Source of the DNA: Elusimicrobiaceae bacterium
GTDB taxonomy: Bacteria; Elusimicrobiota; Elusimicrobia; Elusimicrobiales; Elusimicrobiaceae
Length of the DNA: 52,269 nucleotides
Reading direction: 5' to 3'
Assembly (NCBI GenBank): GCA_017501565.1
Contig: JAFVWP010000052.1
Coordinates: 1-52,269, forward strand
Both the position numbers and the translations under genes were made by a program. This document shows, in pieces, positions 4,341-44,844 of this stretch (positions within the stretch are counted from its first letter, which is position 1; the number at the start of each line of letters is the position of its first letter). Below the pieces are notes generated by a model. The model did not search any database and was not told the origin of the DNA. It saw only the letters and a list, made by a program, of their open reading frames with translations.

Positions 4341-4371
4341 CAAAGCCCCCAATATGGGGGCTTTGTTATTG
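4341..4371. terminator. Bidirectional intrinsic terminator between convergent genes
   Basis: Perfect 10-bp stem CAAAGCCCCC / GGGGGCTTTG with a 5-nt loop (4341-4365), followed on the plus strand by a U-rich but imperfect tract. It sits between the transporter gene and the convergent metallopeptidase gene, whose stop codon is at 4366-4368, so it could serve both. Confidence 0.75.
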
Positions 4372-5589
4372 TAAAGTTTGTAACATTTTTATAACTTCTT
4401 GCCGTTGGAGCTCTTGTTCTTTCGTTAGGCCTTTATGCTTTTTAAGGTATCCCGGCACCGGCTCAAAATATTGTTTAAAAATATACTTTCCGTAAATTTT
4501 AAAATGCACAATATGGGGTTTACCTTTAGAAAAAAGCTCCCTATGCATTCTAAACGCCGTCCGTTTTTTCTTAATAGGCGGATATTTATATACGCCGTTT
4601 ACAATTGCCCCCACTTCCGGTACGCGTGAGTCAGACAATAACGGATAAATAATACGCTTGGTTTGGGTTAAACGATCTAAAATGGTTATCAGGCCCATTA
4701 CATCATCGGCGGTACGTTTCTTATTTATAGAATAGCTCATAATGCCGTTGCCCACATAGGGGGTAGAGTAGGGTTCGTCAAAGTTATGACCGACCCAAAG
4801 CATTTTGCCCCCTAAAGGATTTCTTTGTTCAAAACGTTGATGTTCATCAAAGCATTCATCAGCCAGCCCAAAGCCATGGCCCACTTCGTGCAGCATAACC
4901 CCATACACATAATCGCTATAACCATAACGCTCTTTATCAATGATTTTCCAATCTCTGATACTAAACGAAAAATAATTGTTCCTGATTACCTTTTCCAAGG
5001 ACAATTTATCATGGTCGGTATCCGCCAATGTTTGCTCAAAATAATCTTGCACTTTGGCTTTTTTCTTTTCGCGAAGAGAGTGGTAGGTTTTATAATCTGT
5101 ATATACAATCCCAATCATAGAATCCCCGCCGAATTGGCCTCTTCTTTCATAAAATGCGCCAATGTCTTTTAGGTCCTTTCTTTGAACGTCCGCCACGATT
5201 TCAATATCTGCTTTTTCAGTCCACTCTCTGCGGCATTGGCCTTTATTAATCAATTGAAAAGGCTTATTCAGCAAAAGAATAATATCCTTAAACTCTTCGG
5301 CGCGGCCCGATTTTTCCAAATAGTCGGCCGTCCCATGGGTCCATTCCCTAAAAGCGGCTTCAAAATACACAGACAACATTTCATCGGAAAGCGGATATTC
5401 CCAATCGTTGGGAGAAGGATAGGTACAATAGCTCAGGGCATCACGGGTTAAAAATTTATGAACTAAATAATGGTTGGAAGGAACATCTTGGCCCGAAGAA
5501 TTTTTGACAAACAAATCGCGCAAGTGCCCATAGCAGAAACCTTCGGCACTGCATAATACAAGTAATAAAGTGATTATTATTTTTTTCAT
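4366..5589 (-). CDS. Secreted metzincin-like zinc metallopeptidase
   Basis: A 407-residue protein with a Sec signal peptide (residues 1 to about 17-20, KK then a leucine/isoleucine-rich core). The zinc signature HEVGHGFGLAD is at residues 234-244, giving HEXXHXXGXXD with Asp as the probable third ligand, as in snapalysin-type (M7) peptidases rather than the usual His. A GIMSYS segment about 60 residues later fits the Met-turn that closes a metzincin active site. The remainder matches no family I recognise. It is monocistronic: terminators flank it at 4341 and 5676. The Shine-Dalgarno sequence is weak (CCGGAA before ATG). Role is inferred as an envelope or extracellular protease; the substrate is unknown. 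Confidence 0.75.
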   Translation of the reverse strand: MKKIIITLLLVLCSAEGFCYGHLRDLFVKNSSGQDVPSNHYLVHKFLTRDALSYCTYPSPNDWEYPLSDEMLSVYFEAAFREWTHGTADYLEKSGRAEEFKDIILLLNKPFQLINKGQCRREWTEKADIEIVADVQRKDLKDIGAFYERRGQFGGDSMIGIVYTDYKTYHSLREKKKAKVQDYFEQTLADTDHDKLSLEKVIRNNYFSFSIRDWKIIDKERYGYSDYVYGVMLHEVGHGFGLADECFDEHQRFEQRNPLGGKMLWVGHNFDEPYSTPYVGNGIMSYSINKKRTADDVMGLITILDRLTQTKRIIYPLLSDSRVPEVGAIVNGVYKYPPIKKKRTAFRMHRELFSKGKPHIVHFKIYGKYIFKQYFEPVPGYLKKHKGLTKEQELQRQEVIKMLQTLQ

Positions 5590-5675
5590 AGATTCCGGCC
5601 CTTACTTAAAAGATACTTTTTTACTTGATAAAAAAACAGGGCCTTTGGGCCTAAAAAAAAGGATAAAAAAGGCCT

Positions 5676-27004: not shown

Positions 27005-27030
27005 AAAAAACCCCGGTTTTATTCCCGGGG
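27005..27030 (-). terminator. Intrinsic terminator after the exported paralog gene at 27038
   Basis: Stem CCCCGG / CCGGGG (27011-27030) followed by six T residues on the minus strand, seven bases downstream of the stop codon. Confidence 0.88.
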
Positions 27031-27037
27031 TATAAAA

Positions 27038-28135
27038 TTAGTAACTGCCTACACTTTTTAGCACATCTTGCACTTGCTGTTGCCACAAAGCTTTTATTTT
27101 ATGTTCTTCTTTTTCGGCTTCTTGTAAAAGAGCAAGGCTCTGTTCAGCCGTTAATTCATTCACCCGATCCCAGGTATCATATACTTCCAAACTGCGTTCC
27201 ACTAGCGCAGGTGAGCGTAAGATCGCTTCAAAGGTTTGGTCGTCCACGTCTAAGAGCAAAATAGGATTAGCATCTATGCGGCTTAAGATTTCCGCATCGT
27301 TGGCGTGGGCCGAAGATACTCCTAAAAATAATCCCACCGCTACCAGCGGAAGACTCTTTTTGAAAACCATTTTCCCTACTTTACCCAAGCTTTTTACCCC
27401 GCCGGTACCGACCGCGCGTTTCAGCGCGGTTTGGCCCGCTTTAGCCCGGACAGGATTTACATAGGCATACAAACTTCTTCCGGCGCGCATCTCGGCCGTC
27501 AACGTTTTTTCAAATTGTTCTTGCAGGGCCTTGGTGTAAGAGGTAATGCCGTTTTCTCCCGACACCAACAAAGTGTTTCCGTCCAAAGTTGCCTTGGCCA
27601 TAAAATCTTCGTATAAAGCACTCACTCTTTCTACAAATTCTTTTTCCAACCCCGGCGTTACCTGAAAGGCCCGCTCGGCTGATTCGGCAATGACGTTTTT
27701 GATTTCATATATATGGGTTTCTTTCCAACGTTCAAATAATTGCTGCATGACCGGCATCATTTCTTCGCCCAATTGCGAAGCCATATACGTCTGCCCTTTG
27801 GGCATTTGCGCCCAAAGTTTGCTTTGGGCCGCATACAAATCTACCGACGTCAACGCAGACGTTTTTTTAGCCGACATTTTGCTTAAACGATAGCTAGCTT
27901 CTTTGATTAACACAAGCCCGCCTGCAAGAGCGCTGGGGATACCGATTGTAATCAACAAATTGGTTATTATCTTTTTATCTTTTTGGGTTTTCTGTGGCAT
28001 AGCGGAAGAAAGCGCAACATAATTCGCCCGCACAATACGCAATTGCTCCACCTTATTCTCTTGGGCAAAAAGGGTGGAAGAAAAAACCATCAAAGACAAA
28101 ACCCCGGCTAATGATTTTTGGAAGAATTCTCTCAT
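27038..28135 (-). CDS. Exported protein of unknown family, paralog A
   Basis: A 365-residue protein with an N-terminal Sec signal peptide (to about residue 24, ending LFAQ). A hydrophobic segment at about 55-75 follows. A second hydrophobic stretch near residue 265, preceded by KK and ending SSAHAND, looks like an internal signal peptide. After it comes the segment LSRIDANPILLLDVDD and a charged helical tail. The next gene on this strand, at 28259, encodes a clear paralog with the same layout. The ATG at 28135 is chosen over the GTG at 28141 because GGGAG lies 8 nt upstream. I recognise no characterised family. It has its own terminator. Confidence 0.75.
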   Translation of the reverse strand: MREFFQKSLAGVLSLMVFSSTLFAQENKVEQLRIVRANYVALSSAMPQKTQKDKKIITNLLITIGIPSALAGGLVLIKEASYRLSKMSAKKTSALTSVDLYAAQSKLWAQMPKGQTYMASQLGEEMMPVMQQLFERWKETHIYEIKNVIAESAERAFQVTPGLEKEFVERVSALYEDFMAKATLDGNTLLVSGENGITSYTKALQEQFEKTLTAEMRAGRSLYAYVNPVRAKAGQTALKRAVGTGGVKSLGKVGKMVFKKSLPLVAVGLFLGVSSAHANDAEILSRIDANPILLLDVDDQTFEAILRSPALVERSLEVYDTWDRVNELTAEQSLALLQEAEKEEHKIKALWQQQVQDVLKSVGSY

Positions 28136-28221
28136 TTTCACGACTCCCTAAAATAAAAATCTTTCTTACATTTTTTCAAAAATATACCTGGCTCACAAGG
28201 GTAAAAAGACCCAAACAGCAT

Positions 28222-28254
28222 AAAAAAAAGGCCCACTTTCAAAATGGGCCTTTT
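28222..28254 (-). terminator. Intrinsic terminator after exported paralog B
   Basis: 10-bp stem AAAAGGCCCA / TGGGCCTTTT (28226-28254) with a T run of eight on the minus strand. The two paralogous genes are therefore transcribed separately. Confidence 0.9.
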
Positions 28255-28258
28255 AGCA

Positions 28259-29341
28259 CTAACGATTGGAAATATTGCGTAAGTCTCGGTTGATTTGTTG
28301 TTGCATTAGACGTTTTTGTTGCTGTTTATAGGCTTGGGCGTCTTCCCCTAAAATTTCTAAATCTTCATCGGGCAATTCATTTATCTGCGTTACCAACGCA
28401 CAGGCAGACAGAAAGCGGTTGGATAACTCCGGCGATTGGGCAATGACGGATAAGTCTTGCTCCGTCGCTTGCAACAGCAAAGCGGGGTTGGCATCTACTC
28501 TGGCCAACACTTCTTGCTCTTCGGCGAAAGAAGGCACCTGTGTCAACGCCACCAAAGCGGCAAACACAACCACCTTTTTCATGGCTTTACCCAACACCTT
28601 AACTCCAACAGGACGGCCTTTGCCTTTATATCTTAAAAGCCCGGCGGTAAAGTTTTTTCGTCCGGCGGCAAAAATCTCGGCTTCTTGCAGGGTGGCAAAC
28701 TCTTTTACATAGGCCGAAAGCGGGCCGTTTTTGCTCATGGCGGCGGCTAAATCTTCATTAAATTTAGCGACACAATCCCATCTTATATCGCCCAAACCCC
28801 GAAGCGTACGCATACGCGTCTGCTCCGTAATCACCACTTCGCTCAAATTTTTTTCCCACATTTTGCCGGCTTGTTCTAAAAATTCTTTATAGTGGGCTTG
28901 GTCAATCACAAAAAATTTCCGCCCCCAAGGCTCGGTAAAGATAACAGGCATTTCGTACACATACCCGGTTTTCCAATTGTTGAGCAGTTTCTGTAATAAG
29001 TGCACATTTTTAGTCCCTAACTCTCCTGCCAAATAAGAGCCGCCGCGGGCCAAATCTGCCTGCGCCTTATACAGGCCCAAATACCCGCGTGCTTCTTCTT
29101 TAATCGCGGCGTAAGAAATCAGTTTTTTCACGCCAAAAATAGCTAATCCACCCGCCGTACCGCCGGCTACAACCGCCAACAAATCCCCCGCCAAATGGCC
29201 TTTTTTCTTTAGTTGTGCGGTGGCTTCTTGCGCTTGTTGTTGTGCCAAAAGCAAGTCTTGCGGATTGGCCGTTTCTTGGGCCAAAACACTGCTAAAACCC
29301 ATCAGGAAAACATTACATAAAATAAATATTTTTTTCATCAT
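28259..29341 (-). CDS. Exported protein of unknown family, paralog B
   Basis: A 360-residue protein with a signal peptide (residues 1 to about 22, ending VLAQ) and a glycine-rich hydrophobic segment near 45-65. It shares with paralog A the GLYKAQADL / DLYAAQSKL region, the NWKTGYVYEM / RWKETHIYEI region, and VDANPALLL / IDANPILLL after an internal hydrophobic stretch. That stretch (about residue 255, AMKKVVVFAALVALTQVPSF then AEE) looks like a complete Sec signal peptide inside the protein. The ATG at 29341 is used; no Shine-Dalgarno sequence is visible, and a CAAAAT box ends 7 nt upstream. The open frame extends to 29371 but that would bury the signal peptide. Function unknown. Confidence 0.75.
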   Translation of the reverse strand: MMKKIFILCNVFLMGFSSVLAQETANPQDLLLAQQQAQEATAQLKKKGHLAGDLLAVVAGGTAGGLAIFGVKKLISYAAIKEEARGYLGLYKAQADLARGGSYLAGELGTKNVHLLQKLLNNWKTGYVYEMPVIFTEPWGRKFFVIDQAHYKEFLEQAGKMWEKNLSEVVITEQTRMRTLRGLGDIRWDCVAKFNEDLAAAMSKNGPLSAYVKEFATLQEAEIFAAGRKNFTAGLLRYKGKGRPVGVKVLGKAMKKVVVFAALVALTQVPSFAEEQEVLARVDANPALLLQATEQDLSVIAQSPELSNRFLSACALVTQINELPDEDLEILGEDAQAYKQQQKRLMQQQINRDLRNISNR

Positions 29342-29414
29342 ATGTTTATTTTGACAAATAAATGCAAACAAAAAAAGGGTCTTTGGTCCTATCCTTACAT
29401 CAGCAAAAGACCTA

Positions 29415-34109: not shown

Positions 34110-34201
34110 GACCCACGCGCCGTCTAGGTCCATTGGTCCTTGCGTAGCAAAGCAAAAATCCATATACTTTAAGAAATACTTTCCTTATACAAGGAGTCTT
34201 T

Positions 34202-36313
34202 ATGTCTAAAAACAAAACCAAAGCTCTCGGCAAAGCCGTCATTGTGCTGTTAAGCATAGCGATTGTCGTCTTTCTTTTACTTCCCTTTTTAGATAGTTCC
34301 GCTTCCGACGGAAAATCCGGCAACTCTAAAGGCAAAAAAGCCATTGCGCAAATTTTTACGTCCAACCCGTTGACGGACTTGGCTAAAAAAATATTTGCCA
34401 TGTTCAAAAAAGAAAATCCACAACAAAAACCGCAGTCATACGCGTATGCCGAATCGGAAGATTTTGCCGAATGGACCGCAGAACAACGCGCCGCAGCCGA
34501 GCATGATGCCGTGGCGGCAGATGCTTCAGAAACGACATCTGTGGATGCCAATTTTAATTATTCCGAAGGGGCTTCTATGATAGACGAAGACGGAGAATGG
34601 ATTTTAGTGCGCCAAACCACGCCGGAAGCTTCCCAGAAAGGCATGCATGATATAACGTCTAAAGAAAGCGCCTACGACCGCTTGGTCCGCCAAGAACGCG
34701 CCGCCAAATATACCGGCAAAGCTACCGATGCCGCCGGGCCGGCCATTCCGGACTCTAAATGGGCCCGCTTGTGGAAGCCTATTAAAAATTTCTTTGGCGG
34801 TGAAGATGAAGCAAGCGCACCCCAAACACCAAATACAGAAAGATTTATGTTGGCTTCGGCCGATTCGGGCTTTGGTAGCAATGCCTTTAAGCGCGGCAGA
34901 ATCGGCAAGTCTGCCGGCAAAGCACAGATACCGGGTAGTTTGGGTACAGGGTTCAGCAATACGGCAGATGCCCCTTCTTTGTCTGAGTTGATGGATTTGG
35001 ATCTTGTTTTAAGCAGGACCAAAGACGGACTTTTAGAAAACGCTAAAAAGACACTTAAACCCGAACAATACGAAAAGGTAAGCAAAGAAATAGAAAAGCG
35101 AATGCTGATCAACCATCAAAAAGCCAGTGCGGAAATAGCCAAAAATATTGAAAATGCGGCCCAAAACAGCCAGGCGAATAACTTGATTGAAAAAACGTTT
35201 TATGCCGGAGAATCAGGTTCTTCTTCTTTATACAGCAGTAGCACGGAACAAAACGGCGCAGGGTTAGAGTTGAGCTTACCCATAGTAGAAGACGACCAGA
35301 AAGTGATGCAACAGCAAAACCTGGACACCATACGCAGGACTTTTGATGTGCCGGGTTTCAGACATACGCCGCAAATGATTGCGGTCTTGGGAAAGACGGA
35401 AGATTTTGACCCCACTCTTTTACAAGAAAACAATGAACAAAGTGTTCACGTTTCAGACTATTATCAACTTTTATTAGAAAAAAATAAGTGTAAAGAGAAA
35501 GGTTGTGTATGGGTAATGCTTAAGCCGCCCAGTGAAGAAAACGAGCAACAACAAGCACGTTTACAAGGAAGTATTGCGGCCGCTGGCTTCCAACCCCTTG
35601 GAGTCGAAAGAGAGATAGAAGATATAGATCAAAGCTACTTTATGGCTGAGTTTTCCTTAAAACAAATGGATGAAGATCTTAATGATGACATAGATCTTTC
35701 TATGGCTGAAAGCGCCTTACAAGATATGGAAGAGGATATCGCAAAAGACAATATATTTGGATACACGGAGGAACAGGTCATCGCGCAAAAAAAAGAAGTG
35801 GCCAGATTACAAGCAGAATACGAAGAAAGACAAGAGGCTAATTTTAGAGAATGGAAAGAAACAAGAGAAGAGTTAAAGACTTTATCCAGGAACTATTATC
35901 CCTTGCCCAACGATGAATTTAAAAAGCTGATTGCCGGGCCCGAGCAAGAGAAAGATGAAAAAGGCCACGCAAGCAAACATACCCACAAAGATATGCCTTT
36001 TATTTTGGGCAATGCCGCGGCCATCAATAATTTAGTAAAAGACAATTTAATAGAAGATCCTTGCAAAGTGATTGTTGACACCGATGATAAAATAATGGAC
36101 GTAAGCAAAACGAAAGATGATAGAGAACGTTCCAGCCTGATTACCGAAGCCAGTATGCGCACTTTCACCAGAAATAAAGCAGCGTTCGATAATGCGGCTC
36201 AAGACCTGACCGCTCACGGCAACAAACTGATTATGCAGTACTCCATGGAAAACGTACAAGAAGAACTGCAAAAAAGCGCCGGGAAATCGGCCGATGAAAT
36301 TATGGGCTTATAA
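34202..36313 (+). CDS. Membrane-anchored protein of unknown function (703 aa)
   Basis: One transmembrane helix (about residues 10-30, AVIVLLSIAIVVFLLLPFL) follows a short Lys-rich N-terminus; no signal cleavage site is obvious, so the protein is probably anchored with the large C-terminal part outside the cytoplasm. The rest is hydrophilic, rich in Ala, Glu, Lys and Gln, and includes long predicted helices (for example around VIAQKKEVARLQAEYEERQ, residues about 520-540). From about 35.4 kb the codons become more A-rich with more AGA/AGG Arg than in neighbours. AAGGAG precedes the ATG and a strong terminator follows. I recognise no family; it may be lineage-specific. Confidence 0.75.
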   Translation: MSKNKTKALGKAVIVLLSIAIVVFLLLPFLDSSASDGKSGNSKGKKAIAQIFTSNPLTDLAKKIFAMFKKENPQQKPQSYAYAESEDFAEWTAEQRAAAEHDAVAADASETTSVDANFNYSEGASMIDEDGEWILVRQTTPEASQKGMHDITSKESAYDRLVRQERAAKYTGKATDAAGPAIPDSKWARLWKPIKNFFGGEDEASAPQTPNTERFMLASADSGFGSNAFKRGRIGKSAGKAQIPGSLGTGFSNTADAPSLSELMDLDLVLSRTKDGLLENAKKTLKPEQYEKVSKEIEKRMLINHQKASAEIAKNIENAAQNSQANNLIEKTFYAGESGSSSLYSSSTEQNGAGLELSLPIVEDDQKVMQQQNLDTIRRTFDVPGFRHTPQMIAVLGKTEDFDPTLLQENNEQSVHVSDYYQLLLEKNKCKEKGCVWVMLKPPSEENEQQQARLQGSIAAAGFQPLGVEREIEDIDQSYFMAEFSLKQMDEDLNDDIDLSMAESALQDMEEDIAKDNIFGYTEEQVIAQKKEVARLQAEYEERQEANFREWKETREELKTLSRNYYPLPNDEFKKLIAGPEQEKDEKGHASKHTHKDMPFILGNAAAINNLVKDNLIEDPCKVIVDTDDKIMDVSKTKDDRERSSLITEASMRTFTRNKAAFDNAAQDLTAHGNKLIMQYSMENVQEELQKSAGKSADEIMGL

Positions 36314-38263: not shown

Positions 38264-39565
38264 ATGAAAAAAATCGTCTTATCCTTGGTAGCACTTTGTT
38301 TGGCCTTGCCGTTGTTTGCGCAAAAAGAGTACGGCCTTCGCTTTTCCAGCCTGATTAATGATGAGCTTTCTTTAGAAAATGCCATTCGTTTGGGATTAGA
38401 AAATAACAGCGATTTTCTGTTGGCCCAACAAGAAATTATTATTGCCGAACAAAAAGTAAAACAAGCCAAATTTCTTTTCTTGCCGCAAATTGCTTTGCAA
38501 GGTACAGCCACTTGGTATGATTTGGACTATCCGATGGTATTGCCCGAATCCGTGGCCAACCGCTATATTCCAAGCAACGACTCCCAAACTGCCGGGGACA
38601 AACATCAATTTTTCGGCGTAGGCATATCCGCCACCCAATATTTATACTCCGGCGGACGCTTCCGCGGGGCCTTAAAGGCGGCCCAAGCCAACTTAAAACA
38701 AGCCCAAAGCAAATACGAAGCTGTCAAAAATGCAGTAGTATTGGATATTAAAAAATCCTTTTTTTCCTTGCAATATGCCCAATATAACCTGACATTGGCC
38801 CAAGCGGTACAGCAAAAGGCCGACCGCTACTTCAAAGGGCTGAAGCTTTCTTCTTGGGACAAAATCAAAGCACAATATTTACTTTCTGTGTTATATTCAG
38901 AAAAAAATACCGCCCAAAAAGATTTGCAAAAAGCCCAACTTGCCATGTTGGTCAGCTTAAATAAAGAACTCAATGCCCCCATTAAAGTAAAAGGCGAATT
39001 CAAACCTGCCACCTTAAACTTAGATTTAGCTTACTTAAATTTATGGTCCCTGGAATTTCGCCCCGAATTAAAATCTGCCATTTACGCGTTGGAGTTAGAC
39101 TCTTTGGCCATAGACTTGGCTCTTTCCCGCCGCTACCCCGACATTATTTTGACCGGCAGCTACGAACAATTGGGCGTAGAAGATTTAAATGACGTCAACA
39201 AACAAATCTCTCTGGCGGTGCGCTTGCCGATTCCCTACAACGTAGCCACCCAAACGGCCCAACGCAAAGCCGAACAAAAACAAAGCTCTTTGCGTAGAGC
39301 CGCCATTGAAGACAAAATCCGTGTGCAAGTGGCAGAAAGTTATGCCAATATGGTTTTTTGGCAGAATGAAGCTACCGCACGCCAAGCTACTTGGCAAGAA
39401 GTGCAAAAACTGCTTAGCCAAGCGGAAAATTCTTCCCGCGCAGATTTAAGCGCTTTAGAAGCCTTACACGCCTATTACCAAACCGGAAGAGATTACTACG
39501 AAGGAATCCGCCAAAATTTATCTTCCAAAGCCAGCTTGGAATGGGCCATCGGCCGGGATTTATAA
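38264..39565 (+). CDS. TolC-like outer-membrane efflux protein
   Basis: A 433-residue protein with signal peptide ending LFAQ (about residue 20). The OEP family features are visible: SLENAIRLGLENNSDFLLAQQE near the N-terminus, long Ala/Gln-rich coiled coils (for example KAAQANLKQAQSKYEAVKNAV), and a second repeat in the C-terminal half ending near KLLSQAENSSRADLSALEALHAYY. TolC-type channels form trimeric exit ducts for ABC, RND or type I systems. No membrane fusion protein or inner-membrane pump is in the same operon, so partners must be elsewhere. Confidence 0.88.
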   Translation: MKKIVLSLVALCLALPLFAQKEYGLRFSSLINDELSLENAIRLGLENNSDFLLAQQEIIIAEQKVKQAKFLFLPQIALQGTATWYDLDYPMVLPESVANRYIPSNDSQTAGDKHQFFGVGISATQYLYSGGRFRGALKAAQANLKQAQSKYEAVKNAVVLDIKKSFFSLQYAQYNLTLAQAVQQKADRYFKGLKLSSWDKIKAQYLLSVLYSEKNTAQKDLQKAQLAMLVSLNKELNAPIKVKGEFKPATLNLDLAYLNLWSLEFRPELKSAIYALELDSLAIDLALSRRYPDIILTGSYEQLGVEDLNDVNKQISLAVRLPIPYNVATQTAQRKAEQKQSSLRRAAIEDKIRVQVAESYANMVFWQNEATARQATWQEVQKLLSQAENSSRADLSALEALHAYYQTGRDYYEGIRQNLSSKASLEWAIGRDL

Positions 39566-39574
39566 ACACATATC

Positions 39575-40534
39575 ATGACTTGCAAAATCTTTGCACTTTG
39601 TTGGACTTTTTTGGCAATGTTTTTAGCTCCCGCTTTGGGTGCTTTGCCTATTGCTACGGAAGATGACATCGTGCGGGAATTTTTATGGGAGGAATTTACC
39701 GCCTTGCCGGCACAAGAACGTCCGTCAGTGGGGGTGGCCTTATCGGCCGGCGGGGTGCGCGGTTTTGCCCACGTGGGGGTGCTGGAAGTGTTAGACAATG
39801 CCGGCGTGCCGATAGATATGATGGCGGGGACTTCTATGGGCGCGGTAATCGGGTCTTTATATGCCGCGGGCCTTCCTACCGAAAAAATATGGCAAATCAG
39901 CTCTCACATTAATTTTGAAAAAATCTCGCCCGATTTCAATTTAATGGGCCTTTTGCGTCTGCTTTTTGCCCAAAAGTTACCCTCTTCCAGCAATTTACAA
40001 GAGTTTTTTCACCAACAAATAGGGCACATGCGCTTTGAAGATTTAGACATTCCTTTTGCCACTGCGGCTATGGACGTAAAAACCGGAGAACAGGTGGTTT
40101 TTGATTCCGGCCCGGTATCCATTGCTGTTCGGGCCAGCATGAATTTACCCGGTGTTTTTGACCCGGTAGAATACCGCCACCGCTATTTGGTAGACGGCGC
40201 TGTGGTTAATTATCTGCCCGTCAATTTGGTCAAAAAGCAAGGGGCCGATTATATTATTGCTTCCATTACCCCGCTTGATTTTTCATCGCAAGCCCCGCAA
40301 TCCATTGCCGCTTATTTATTGCGCGTAGGGGACGTGCGCGGAGCCGCCATGATAGACGATGCCGCGCAAAAAGCCAATTTCTCCATTTTTAACAGAGTAG
40401 TAGGCATCAACACCTTGGAATTGGATAAATTGCAAGATGCCGGAAAGGTAGGGATCCTTTCTGCCAATAGCCAATTAAAGGAGTTACAGGAAGATCTCCT
40501 GTTATTTTCTATCCATGATATTGTTAAAAAGTAA
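39575..40534 (+). CDS. Patatin-like phospholipase, exported
   Basis: A 319-residue protein with an N-terminal hydrophobic signal segment ending near APALG (about residue 23). The patatin fold is clear: oxyanion hole LSAGGVRGFAHVGVLEVL, nucleophile S87 in GTSMG, and D207 in VDGAVVNYLP, making the Ser-Asp dyad. It resembles RssA-type bacterial patatins. Acyl hydrolysis of membrane lipid in the periplasm is probable. No Shine-Dalgarno sequence is seen before the ATG, 9 nt after the TolC-like stop. Its end overlaps the TPR gene by 20 nt. Confidence 0.88.
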   Translation: MTCKIFALCWTFLAMFLAPALGALPIATEDDIVREFLWEEFTALPAQERPSVGVALSAGGVRGFAHVGVLEVLDNAGVPIDMMAGTSMGAVIGSLYAAGLPTEKIWQISSHINFEKISPDFNLMGLLRLLFAQKLPSSSNLQEFFHQQIGHMRFEDLDIPFATAAMDVKTGEQVVFDSGPVSIAVRASMNLPGVFDPVEYRHRYLVDGAVVNYLPVNLVKKQGADYIIASITPLDFSSQAPQSIAAYLLRVGDVRGAAMIDDAAQKANFSIFNRVVGINTLELDKLQDAGKVGILSANSQLKELQEDLLLFSIHDIVKK

Positions 40535-41506: not shown

Positions 41507-43120
41507 TTACGGAAAAGGTACAAACGGCTTGCGGGGCGGTTTAGCAAAAACAGGGTCTATGGTCAGCTCTTCTAATATAATGGAAGGTGCCACTACATTT
41601 CCGCCATCTTGCCACACTTGTAAGTCATCAGCTGCCGCGGAAATACTGCGCAAACTGCGTAAATCCGCCCCGCTTATGCGTCCCAATACCCATTCTCTAC
41701 GTCCGTCTTGGGTATAGACACGCTCTAACAGAGAATTAGCATCGCCTTTATCGTCCCAAATATAACAATACTCCATTTCCTGTTCTTTGCATTTTTCTAA
41801 GAATAAGCGTTCCAATTCCGCCACACTCATGGTCTTTTTAGGAATAAAAAACACATTGGTCAGCGCCGCTCTGGGGGCATAGTTAACACTTCTGGCGTGT
41901 CCGTTGCTTTGCTTTTGGTCTTTTATTAAACTTCTGATTGTGGGCAAAGTCATCAATTTGCCATTTTTAATCAATTGCAACTCTTGCGGTTTTACCCCTT
42001 CTGCATCTATGGGTGTAAATTTGGACAATTTCTGCCCATTATATTCTTTGGCAAAGGGTCTGTCATAGACATCAAACAAAGGGCTAATCACCCGCAAACC
42101 CATTCTGTCTTTAAAAGGGCTTACCGCCAACGAAAACCCAAGGCTTATCTCTGAAGACAAAAGCGGCTTGGTATTGGCCATGGCGCTTACAAAAGTTCTG
42201 TTAAAATATCTTCCCGCACCTTGCGCTCTTAACAATACCGGGCCAATGTAAGATTGGGCCATTTCAAAATTTTGCCTTTGCGCGGCTGCTTGGTAAAAGG
42301 CGCGTACTTGTTGCATTAATTTTTCTTTATCTAAAGGAGCATTAAAATCCAAATCAAACGTTTCTTTTTCTTCTATCACATAGCCGTGTTTACTGCGATA
42401 GGTAAAAAGAACTTGGATAAATTCCTTTTGCAACGGATAAACGGCAAAATCCCCTTCGCTGTCCAAAAAATAAATTTCCTGTTGGCGGCGGGTAAACTCA
42501 GCCACTAATTTTTCCAAATGTTTAATTTCCGGACGCAACGAAGTAATTTCATTTAATAGTTGCTGATATTGCGCTTCATCTCTGTATGTAAAGGGTGGAA
42601 TGTCTTCCACATAGGCCGTTTTGGGAGCATAAGAAAAATCTGCTTCTTCCCCTTCCAAATTTTTCTGTTTTTTATAGGCTTCTTTCTTTTCATATAACGT
42701 AGCCGCCGATAAATATTGCGTATTGGTGCTTTTCCACAAAGCGCGGCGGATTCCGTCGTAACTTTTGGGGATATTTACTTCGTAAGATACCCCCAAATCA
42801 GACCCGCTTTTATCTGCGCTAAAGCCGGAGCTATTGCTTTTGGCGGTACCGGCGTACAAATAGACATCTGCGTGTAAATCCTGCGGCTCTTGTAAATTAT
42901 TCACTACCGCTTGCCCAAAATGAGAAGATAATTGTTGCTTTTCGGTCTGGGTCAGTTTATACACAATAAAGAAAGGTTTTGGTCCCCCTTTCATACGCAA
43001 TTCTTTTTTACTGCGTTGCATTTCATCGCGCATAGCACGCAAATACAAATGGTCCGGCATTTTTTGCGCTTGCGCAGATAAAACACCAAAGAAACAGAGC
43101 AGGGTAACTATATATTTCAT
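41507..43120 (-). CDS. Exported TldE/PmbA-like protein without the zinc motif
   Basis: A 537-residue protein with signal peptide ending SAQAQ (about residue 19). Its C-terminal half follows the PmbA/TldE pattern (for example RVISPLFDVYDRPFAKEYNGQ and GISGADLRSLRSISAAADDL). No HEXXXH is present, as in TldE, the non-catalytic partner of TldD. It begins in a 4-nt overlap (ATGA) with the upstream TldD-like gene, which has the zinc motif. Cytosolic TldD/TldE of E. coli lacks a signal peptide, so this pair is unusual. It likely forms a heterodimer outside the cytoplasm. Confidence 0.82.
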   Translation of the reverse strand: MKYIVTLLCFFGVLSAQAQKMPDHLYLRAMRDEMQRSKKELRMKGGPKPFFIVYKLTQTEKQQLSSHFGQAVVNNLQEPQDLHADVYLYAGTAKSNSSGFSADKSGSDLGVSYEVNIPKSYDGIRRALWKSTNTQYLSAATLYEKKEAYKKQKNLEGEEADFSYAPKTAYVEDIPPFTYRDEAQYQQLLNEITSLRPEIKHLEKLVAEFTRRQQEIYFLDSEGDFAVYPLQKEFIQVLFTYRSKHGYVIEEKETFDLDFNAPLDKEKLMQQVRAFYQAAAQRQNFEMAQSYIGPVLLRAQGAGRYFNRTFVSAMANTKPLLSSEISLGFSLAVSPFKDRMGLRVISPLFDVYDRPFAKEYNGQKLSKFTPIDAEGVKPQELQLIKNGKLMTLPTIRSLIKDQKQSNGHARSVNYAPRAALTNVFFIPKKTMSVAELERLFLEKCKEQEMEYCYIWDDKGDANSLLERVYTQDGRREWVLGRISGADLRSLRSISAAADDLQVWQDGGNVVAPSIILEELTIDPVFAKPPRKPFVPFP

Positions 43121-44820
43121 TTTTTCTTCTCCTTCTTTACATCGGGTGCCGGCAATATGGGCGGCTTATAGTGGCTCTTGGCTGATTTTTCCAATTCCAT
43201 ACTTTCAAACAATAAGCTGGGCGATATATTGCTCTGCGGTACCCAGCCTGAAGTACTGCCGCAACTGCCGTTAAAAATCGTATCGTCATCGGCCGCCGCC
43301 ACGATGCGGCTAAAGCTTACCAGCGGAGTGCCCACAATATCCAGGCCGCGCACTAACTCTTTTTTTCCGTCCGGATAAACTTTATAGACCATTTTGGTTT
43401 CTAACTTAAAACTTTGCGGCATGGAAGACGTGGTAAAGGTAAAACCGCCGCTTAAATCTTCCACAATATAACCATAAGGTTTGTTTTGGCGTTTTATTTC
43501 CGCTAACAATTTTTGCTCCAATTCATCGTAAGAAATGGTCTTTTCCGCCTTTACGCGCAATACACTCATGCGTGCGGCCGCGCGCAAACCTATGCTTTTA
43601 CGCCCATGGCCGTTGGAAAGCGAAAACCCTTCAATGGGGCTGCTCTTCATCATAAAGTTTTTCAATATACCTTTCTCTATCAATGTTACCGCTTGCGCTT
43701 TGACCCCTTCATCGTCATATTCATAATATCCGCGCAAAGGCTCTTGGTTAAACTCTTTTAAGGTAGGTTCAGCGGTAATAGTAATTAACGGAGAAATGAC
43801 CTGTTGTCCCACCTTACCGGTCAAGGTTTGCCCGCTGGAAGCATTTTTTTGATCATCGCCTTCCAAGCGGTGGCCCATCACTTCATGGGCAAATACCGCC
43901 GCGGCGCGGCCTTTTAAAATAACCGGTGCGCTGTCCGGCATCCCTTCGGGCGCAACGGCCAACGCTTCCAATTCGTCCATGGATTTCTGAACGTCTGCCG
44001 CCAATTTTTGCGCGGTAGGCAAATCTGCCATAGAGCGCAAATTATAGTCGCCAAAGCGCGATATTTCCATTCCATCAGCTCCGCGCCCATACAAAGAATA
44101 GGTCAACCGGATAAAAGAAAAAGGTGTTTTTATTTGAGTACCGCGGCTATCTACAAAATAGCGGTGGCCCTGTCGGGTGCTGAAAGAAAAAGAAGAATCC
44201 AAAATAGTCTTTTTCCCTTTGGTCATTTGAGAAATAGGCAACAAAAGCTCTTTGACTTTTTGTAAATCAATCTCTTGCAAAGGTTCTTCATGGCAAAAAA
44301 GACTAACAGGCGGAAAAACAAAATCGTCCGATTGGTCTTTATTCACCGCCATATTGCGCACATTATTTTTAACGCGGGCAAAATTTTCTTGCGCCTTTAA
44401 CGCCGCCGAATTTGTCAGCCGCCAAAGCGAAGCCAAAAAACCTTTTTTATCCAAGTCATACGGCGTAGAAACGGAAGAATACAGCGTGCTCCAATCGTCA
44501 CGTTCACCGCGTAAAGAGCGGGTATTATCCATTTTGGGGCTTCCGGCGCGGGCCTGCACTTCAATATCGCCCGTGGTCCAACTATACTCGGTAGAAATAC
44601 CGCCATAAGTAGCGGTCAGCTGATGTTGCACCGACTCTTGGTAAATATAAGAAAGATAATAAATAGGCGGATTTTCTTTTTTAAGCACCTTAAAGTTTCT
44701 TTTAAACTCTTGTTGCATCAGTTGAATAGGCACTTGCTGACCGATCGTGCAATTATTTTGCGCCGCCCCCAATACAGGAAAGCCGGAAACCAACACTGCT
44801 AAAAATAATATTTTTTTCAT
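43117..44820 (-). CDS. Exported TldD-like zinc metallopeptidase
   Basis: A 567-residue protein with signal peptide ending LGAAQ (about residue 20). The TldD zinc signature HEVMGH (HEXXXH) is at residues 312-317, followed by RLEGDD. The C-terminal part has GFSLSNGHGRKSIGLRAAARMS and VRGLDIVGTPLVSFSRIVAAADDD, typical of TldD. The ATG at 44820 is chosen over the GTG at 44826 because AAGGAG is 5 nt before it. TldD/E degrade unfolded or modified peptides (for example in microcin or CcdA processing). Export suggests a periplasmic role; the substrate is unknown. Confidence 0.85.
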   Translation of the reverse strand: MKKILFLAVLVSGFPVLGAAQNNCTIGQQVPIQLMQQEFKRNFKVLKKENPPIYYLSYIYQESVQHQLTATYGGISTEYSWTTGDIEVQARAGSPKMDNTRSLRGERDDWSTLYSSVSTPYDLDKKGFLASLWRLTNSAALKAQENFARVKNNVRNMAVNKDQSDDFVFPPVSLFCHEEPLQEIDLQKVKELLLPISQMTKGKKTILDSSFSFSTRQGHRYFVDSRGTQIKTPFSFIRLTYSLYGRGADGMEISRFGDYNLRSMADLPTAQKLAADVQKSMDELEALAVAPEGMPDSAPVILKGRAAAVFAHEVMGHRLEGDDQKNASSGQTLTGKVGQQVISPLITITAEPTLKEFNQEPLRGYYEYDDEGVKAQAVTLIEKGILKNFMMKSSPIEGFSLSNGHGRKSIGLRAAARMSVLRVKAEKTISYDELEQKLLAEIKRQNKPYGYIVEDLSGGFTFTTSSMPQSFKLETKMVYKVYPDGKKELVRGLDIVGTPLVSFSRIVAAADDDTIFNGSCGSTSGWVPQSNISPSLLFESMELEKSAKSHYKPPILPAPDVKKEKKK

Positions 44821-44844
44821 ATTCACTCCTTTGCTCTTCTTTTC

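What the first reader, a model, noticed from the sequence alone, without database searches (positions are those of the whole stretch)
27038..29341. Tandem paralogous exported proteins with an internal signal-peptide-like segment
Two proteins of about 360 residues share the same plan: signal peptide, hydrophobic segment, a W-K-x-x-x-x-Y-E region, an internal segment of lysines plus a hydrophobic core ending in a small-residue cleavage-like site, then DANPxLLL. The internal segment in paralog B, near residue 255, would be called a Sec signal peptide if it were N-terminal. This suggests processing into two chains or a two-pass topology with a separate C-terminal domain. I do not recognise the family.
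Basis: partly seen in the sequence, partly recalled or inferred. Interest (0 to 1): 0.6.

Follow-up and report, generated by a model that had tools for sequence, protein, structure and literature searches.

The report
Exported protein pair with internal signal
Two neighbouring genes in a gut bacterium belong to a previously undescribed family of exported proteins that carry a second, signal-peptide-like segment in their middle, so their last 87 residues may be cut off outside the cell membrane, and they share a promoter site with many other exported proteins of unknown function.

Summary
A (27038-28135, -) and B (28259-29341, -) are true paralogs (E 1e-23) with no Pfam, NCBIfam, PADLOC or PDB relative. 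They belong to an Elusimicrobiaceae-only family: 79 ORFs in 18 of 341 genomes of the phylum. Family plan: Sec signal peptide; short hydrophobic segment (TM1); variable middle; second hydrophobic segment (TM2); an 87-residue C-domain with invariant R and NPxLFL motif. TM2 is signal-like: Nin-Cout by charge (52 vs 3), shorter than ordinary TMs, and followed by [ASV]x[AS]Q in 41/72 members versus 2/72 after TM1 and 3/229 after control TMs. Best reading: both ends periplasmic, middle cytoplasmic, C-domain probably released by signal peptidase I in about half the subfamilies. Cleavage is inferred, not shown; structure predictions were too poor to help. Unexpectedly, A, B and most family genes carry a palindromic operator-like site (AGGTCTTTTGACCCTTG) at the -35. 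A matrix trained on other genes finds it before 50/72 family genes versus 5/304 controls. Exact sites: 239 in 30 Elusimicrobiaceae genomes (control 2), near background elsewhere. It mostly precedes exported proteins without known domains: a candidate orphan-secretome regulon. The family's biochemical function remains unknown.

The parts
27038..28135 (-). gene A, 365 aa exported two-segment protein (GTG at 28141 also possible)
   Evidence: ORF; family alignment; orthologs L100:8007-9104 and L101:7959-9041; purifying selection
28064..28135 (-). A: N-terminal Sec signal peptide, MREFF...TLFA|QEN
   Evidence: sequence; matches the AxA|Q signal-peptide style of this lineage
27905..27958 (-). A: first hydrophobic segment TM1 (residues 60-77)
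   Evidence: sequence and hydropathy
27302..27361 (-). A: internal signal-like segment TM2, KKSLPLVAVGLFLGVSSAHA|N (residues 259-278)
27041..27301 (-). A: C-terminal domain, 87 aa, R-IDANPILLL
   Evidence: profile A1, searches
28196..28212 (-). A: operator-like site GGGTCTTTTTACCCTTG, 24.1 bits
27010..27031 (-). intrinsic terminator after A
28259..29341 (-). gene B, 359-360 aa exported two-segment protein
   Evidence: ORF; ortholog L100:6870-7967; purifying selection
29279..29338 (-). B: N-terminal Sec signal peptide, MKKIF...SVLA|QET
   Evidence: sequence
29129..29182 (-). B: first hydrophobic segment TM1 (residues 53-70)
   Evidence: sequence and hydropathy
28523..28582 (-). B: internal signal-like segment TM2, MKKVVVFAALVALTQVPSFA|E (residues 253-272)
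28262..28522 (-). B: C-terminal domain, 87 aa, R-VDANPALLL
   Evidence: profile A1, searches
29374..29390 (-). B: operator-like site AGGACCAAAGACCCTTT, 20.7 bits
28226..28254 (-). intrinsic terminator between B and A, so A and B are probably separate transcription units here

Best explanation
A and B are two members of a lineage-restricted (Elusimicrobiaceae) family of cell-envelope proteins. Each is targeted by an N-terminal Sec signal peptide that is removed (inferred from sequence). TM1 then halts export and leaves the middle domain in the cytoplasm; TM2 restarts export and puts the 87-residue R-x-x-x-NPxLFL domain into the periplasm (inferred from charge pattern and from one natural deletion). 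In roughly half the subfamilies, A and B probably included, TM2 is a functional second signal peptide, so signal peptidase I releases the C-domain as a separate chain (inferred, not shown). Transcription starts from promoters carrying a shared palindromic site at the -35, so the family is probably switched together with other exported proteins of unknown function (site shown; binding protein and sign of control unknown). What the domains do biochemically is not known.
For: Paralogy and family. Signal-like TM2: K/R-rich N side (52 members vs 3 the other way), polar-free run median 14 vs 19 for control TMs (P 2e-20; signal peptides 16), [ASV]x[AS]Q in 41/72 vs 9 expected by shuffling, 2/72 after TM1 and 3/229 after control TMs; 13/25 clusters, P 1e-12. 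AxA|Q is also the style of unrelated signal peptides here (Q at +1 in 25 of 70). Natural deletion: L057:3264-3818 has signal peptide and C-domain but lacks TM1, middle and TM2, as expected if N-end and C-domain share a compartment, and keeps the promoter site. One member has a lipobox (LAGC) at the end of TM2. Regulon. Precedent: S. aureus signal peptidase SpsB cuts polytopic LtaS between A217 and S218, releasing the extracellular domain (PMC10865820).
Against: Members are related, so the conserved AQ could be a structural feature; the cluster count only partly corrects this. F-type members and several others lack a good site; A and B have N or E at +1. A PWM cleavage score puts only 38% of family TM2s above the 10th percentile of real signal peptides (controls 14%). 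TM2 does not evolve faster than the rest, so the rate test gave no support. TM1 charge bias is weak (27 vs 19). Structure models are uninformative at TM2.
Confidence: 0.45

Rival explanations
1. Two-pass membrane protein that is never cut: TM1 and TM2 form a hairpin anchoring periplasmic N- and C-parts, and the AxA-Q at the end of TM2 is a packing or membrane-exit feature.
For: Same topology evidence as the best reading; F-type paralogs lacking the site keep the same architecture; TM2 is about as conserved as other regions; the AQ column may simply be inherited.
Against: The site matches the +1 Q signature of unrelated signal peptides of this lineage and is rare after other Nin-Cout TMs, 3/229; TM2 is short for a typical TM, median 14 vs 19.
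Confidence: 0.38
2. The whole protein is exported to the periplasm; TM1 and TM2 are hydrophobic helices buried in a helical bundle or at an interface, not membrane passes.
For: Both segments are short and of marginal hydrophobicity (19-residue mean about 1.5); models are almost all-helical.
Against: Strong charge asymmetry at TM2 and the signal-like ending; L057 removes both segments together.
Confidence: 0.13
3. An in-frame internal start just before TM2 makes a separate, small exported protein from the same gene.
For: B has ATG exactly at MKKVVV (28582) and A has ATG two codons before the KK; ATG is present within 17 codons before TM2 in 47% vs 29% of mid-gene windows.
Against: No Shine-Dalgarno enrichment: 12.5% vs 10.7% in mid-gene windows and 68% at the true starts; orthologs A' and B' lack the Met.
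Confidence: 0.04

Closest known systems
Staphylococcus aureus LtaS and signal peptidase SpsB (polytopic protein cut after its last TM)
   Same: C-terminal extracytoplasmic domain behind a transmembrane segment with an AxA-type site; SpsB cuts LtaS between A217 and S218 (PMC10865820).
   Different: No sequence relation; LtaS is an enzyme with an N-terminal multi-TM domain and no separate N-terminal cleaved signal peptide; here cleavage is only predicted.
Bradyrhizobium FbcH cytochrome b/c1 precursor polyprotein (from memory)
   Same: An internal signal sequence exports the C-terminal half and is cleaved, giving two chains.
   Different: Different proteins and function; recalled, not tested here.
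ExbB/TolQ and other N-out membrane proteins
   Same: N-out topology with a cytoplasmic domain between passes; top structural rows included TolQ/ExbB, but without significance (best E 0.35).
   Different: No significant sequence or fold match; no cleaved signal peptide in those.

Membership tests
Polytopic proteins processed by signal peptidase I (LtaS-like processing) | Nin-Cout hydrophobic segment followed within a few residues by small residues at -3 and -1 | tested here: met
   41/72 members by motif; A: AHA|N, B: SFA|E
Polytopic proteins processed by signal peptidase I (LtaS-like processing) | site present throughout the family | tested here: not met
   F-type subfamily and several single members lack it
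Polytopic proteins processed by signal peptidase I (LtaS-like processing) | observed mature N-terminus after the segment, SPase I dependence | not testable with these tools
   needs protein from cells
Any curated protein family (Pfam, NCBIfam, PHROGs, PADLOC) | score above curated cut-off or consistent hit across members | tested here: not met
   only scattered coiled-coil and chance hits, each in 1-2 of 28 members
Any fold with a solved structure | significant sequence-profile or fold match | tested here: inconclusive
   phmmer/hmmsearch best 0.0068 to a designed repeat protein; Foldseek best E 0.35 from a low-confidence model
Phage or mobile-element protein | occurs in viral contigs or mobile contexts | tested here: not met
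   no viral contigs relative (one pattern set); stable chromosomal synteny beside ispE/spoVG/rpoD and tdh/kbl
AGGTC-N4-GACCC operator regulon (defined here) | high-scoring site 30-95 nt upstream of the start | tested here: met
   A 24.1 bits, B 20.7 bits; 50/72 family genes vs 5/304 controls

The most novel reading that the evidence does not exclude
The family is a set of natural two-chain exported proteins: one gene gives a membrane-held N-chain and a released 87-residue C-chain through a built-in second signal peptide. It is a main component of an Elusimicrobiaceae-wide regulon, defined by a single palindromic promoter site, that controls an orphan secretome of exported proteins without known domains.
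Probability: 0.35. Interest if true: 0.68.

Novelty: new variant of a known kind. Interest (0 to 1): 0.52.

Why it matters
Routine annotation splits proteins into 'signal peptide' or 'transmembrane' and would call TM2 a plain membrane helix. If TM2 is a cleaved second signal peptide, this family would be a rare bacterial case of systematic two-chain processing from an internal signal, testable by N-terminal peptide mapping. The shared promoter site is arguably the larger result: it gives a handle on what an uncharacterised phylum of gut bacteria exports, because most motif-downstream genes tested have signal peptides and no known domain, and the site is present in a genome that looks like the cultured species Elusimicrobium minutum.

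Tried and rejected
Known family: none in Pfam, NCBIfam, PHROGs, PADLOC or PDB. Fold search with the better model: no hit below E 0.35. Structure prediction with five allowed homologs: pLDDT 57 and 63, TM2 below 50, uninformative. Internal translation start: no Shine-Dalgarno enrichment. Evolutionary-rate test (cleaved segments should change fast): TM2 identity 0.52 against 0.48-0.53 elsewhere, no signal. Viral origin: none found. Single-protein scan of genome contigs with A found nothing; the alignment scan found the two orthologous MAG loci. Alignment A1 could not be used as a scan query. Family hidden at the syntenic sites of apparent non-carriers: the ispE-spoVG|nitroreductase-rpoD site of most of 13 such genomes carries no member; the tdh/DUF4912 site of G008, G016 and G010 also lacks one. 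Known RNA element at the leaders: Rfam finds only a tRNA in the window. The first operator pattern was written wrongly and found almost nothing; corrected.

Full report
What is there. They are paralogs (29% over 293 residues, E 1e-23). Each is followed by an intrinsic terminator-like hairpin (27010-27031 and 28226-28254), so here they are probably separate transcription units. Orthologs of both, in the same order and between the same neighbours (a gene I read as DUF4912-type on one side, tdh-kbl on the other), occur in an Elusimicrobiaceae MAG from water-buffalo colon (L100); a roe-deer MAG (L101) has only A. Synonymous sites are saturated (pS 0.72-0.75) while pN is 0.23-0.26: these are maintained protein-coding genes. 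The DUF4912, tdh and kbl names are from memory of the sequences, not from a database hit here.

Family. Searches with B, then with a profile of the C-terminal part (A1), found 7 matches in the window's own genome and, across 341 genomes of the phylum, matches in 18 genomes: 17 of the window's genus and one of a sister genus (G102, one contig of 1,643,562 bases, which from memory is the size of the Elusimicrobium minutum Pei191 genome; not verified). Iterated searching of the fetched loci gave 79 ORFs, some cut by contig ends or by likely frameshifts. No member matches Pfam, NCBIfam, PHROGs, PADLOC or PDB in a consistent way; the scattered hits are coiled-coil or chance matches. Members sit in stable chromosomal places, most often one to three in tandem between ispE-spoVG and a nitroreductase/rpoD pair, in about 17 genomes (gene names by sequence reading). 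Genomes without the family mostly have a clean gap at that site. So this is a vertically kept, clade-restricted family with gene birth and loss, not a phage or mobile gene.

Anatomy. 72 of 74 members of at least 290 ORF residues show: signal peptide (median 23 aa), about 32 residues, TM1, a middle of 118-350 residues (WKxxxxYE belongs to the A/B subtype), TM2, and an 87-residue median tail (range 71-109) with an invariant R and NPxLFL. TM2 has K/R on its N side (more than the C side in 52, less in 3), i.e. Nin-Cout. TM1 has a weak bias the other way (27 vs 19). Hence signal peptide removed, N-end out, middle in, C-domain out. One member (L057:3264-3818) keeps signal peptide and C-domain but has lost TM1, middle and TM2 together, which fits both ends being on the same side.

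Is TM2 a signal peptide? Signal peptides of unrelated proteins in these genomes end in AxA with Q at +1 in 25 of 70. The motif [ASV]x[AS]Q follows TM2 in 41 of 72 members. Shuffling the same windows gives 9 on average (max 18 in 500); TM1 windows give 2; 229 Nin-Cout TMs of other polytopic proteins give 3. Clustering the family at 40% identity leaves 13 of 25 clusters majority-positive (P 1e-12). TM2's run without polar residues is 14 (median), shorter than control TMs (19) and near signal peptides (16). One member has a lipobox (LAGC) at the end of TM2 instead (L085). Against: an F-type subfamily lacks the site, A and B have N and E at +1, a position-weight score puts only 38% of family TM2s in the range of real signal peptides (controls 14%), and TM2 does not evolve faster than its surroundings. 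I therefore hold topology likely (about 0.8) and cleavage about even. An internal translation start is unlikely: Shine-Dalgarno frequency before TM2 equals mid-gene background (12.5% vs 10.7%; true starts 68%).

Structure.

Regulatory site. Reading the leaders showed a recurrent element, later resolved as RGGNCY-WWW-(R)NCCC-TTG, an inverted GGTC-N4-GACC whose 3' end runs into the -35 of promoters of the form TTG-N17-TAxAAT. A matrix trained only on non-family sites scores above 10 bits in 50 of 72 family leaders, against 5 of 304 control genes and 0.1 expected from shuffles; A scores 24.1 and B 20.7. In the whole 52-kb window only four sites exceed 19 bits; the other two lie before an exported protein (4366-5589, -) and a membrane-anchored 703-aa protein (34202-36313, +). 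Up to one mismatch there are about 19-32 sites per genome in the listed genomes, carriers and non-carriers alike, against 0-7 for the reversed control. Exact sites: 239 in 30 sampled Elusimicrobiaceae genomes (reversed control 2), but 33 in 70 other genomes of the phylum (control 17) (my sums). Of 35 non-family genes behind such sites, 31 have a signal peptide versus 79 of 304 background genes (P 4e-13; start choice favours signal peptides somewhat in both sets). Of 20 such proteins tested, 18 have no Pfam match at E 0.001 and the other two are weak peptidase matches below the curated cut-offs. I read this as a family-wide regulon of mostly orphan exported proteins, to which A and B belong. 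The regulator, and whether it activates or represses, are unknown.

Comparison with the known. Cutting of a polytopic protein by signal peptidase I after its last TM is known for LtaS (SpsB, A217|S218; PMC10865820); FbcH is a recalled precedent. The present family would work like these if cleaved, but is unrelated in sequence and is not filed as a member of anything. Verdict: observation confirmed; two-pass topology supported; two-chain processing plausible and testable; new family, function unknown.

Noticed in passing
window 28196-28212 (-), 29374-29390 (-), 5636-5652 (-), 34126-34142 (+); about 19-32 sites per Elusimicrobiaceae genome: Palindromic operator-like site AGGTCTTTTGACCCTTG at the -35 of promoters of mostly exported orphan proteins, specific to Elusimicrobiaceae: a candidate regulon of an unexplored secretome.
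   Followed up: partly
window 41507-43120 (-) and 43117-44826 (-): Two adjacent PmbA/TldD-type metallopeptidase homologs (PF19289, 2e-16 and 1e-28) that both start with apparent Sec signal peptides, so a TldD/TldE-like pair may be exported here, which would be unusual.
   Followed up: no
L085:3397-4602 (+), residues around LLPIAAFISLAGCLQ: One family member has a lipobox (LAGC) at the end of the internal segment, so its C-terminal domain might be released as a lipoprotein; its relative L095 lacks the cysteine.
   Followed up: partly
L063:6575-7393 (-) and the ORF just upstream: A family member without signal peptide lies directly behind a separate ORF with the family's signal peptide; it looks like one gene split by a frameshift.
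   Followed up: no
L057:3264-3818 (+): Natural minimal member: signal peptide and C-terminal domain only, still with the operator site; a good small target for structure work.
   Followed up: partly
window 39575-40534 (+): Patatin-like phospholipase (PF01734, 2e-31) with an apparent signal peptide, downstream of a TolC-like ORF (38264-39565, by reading).
   Followed up: no
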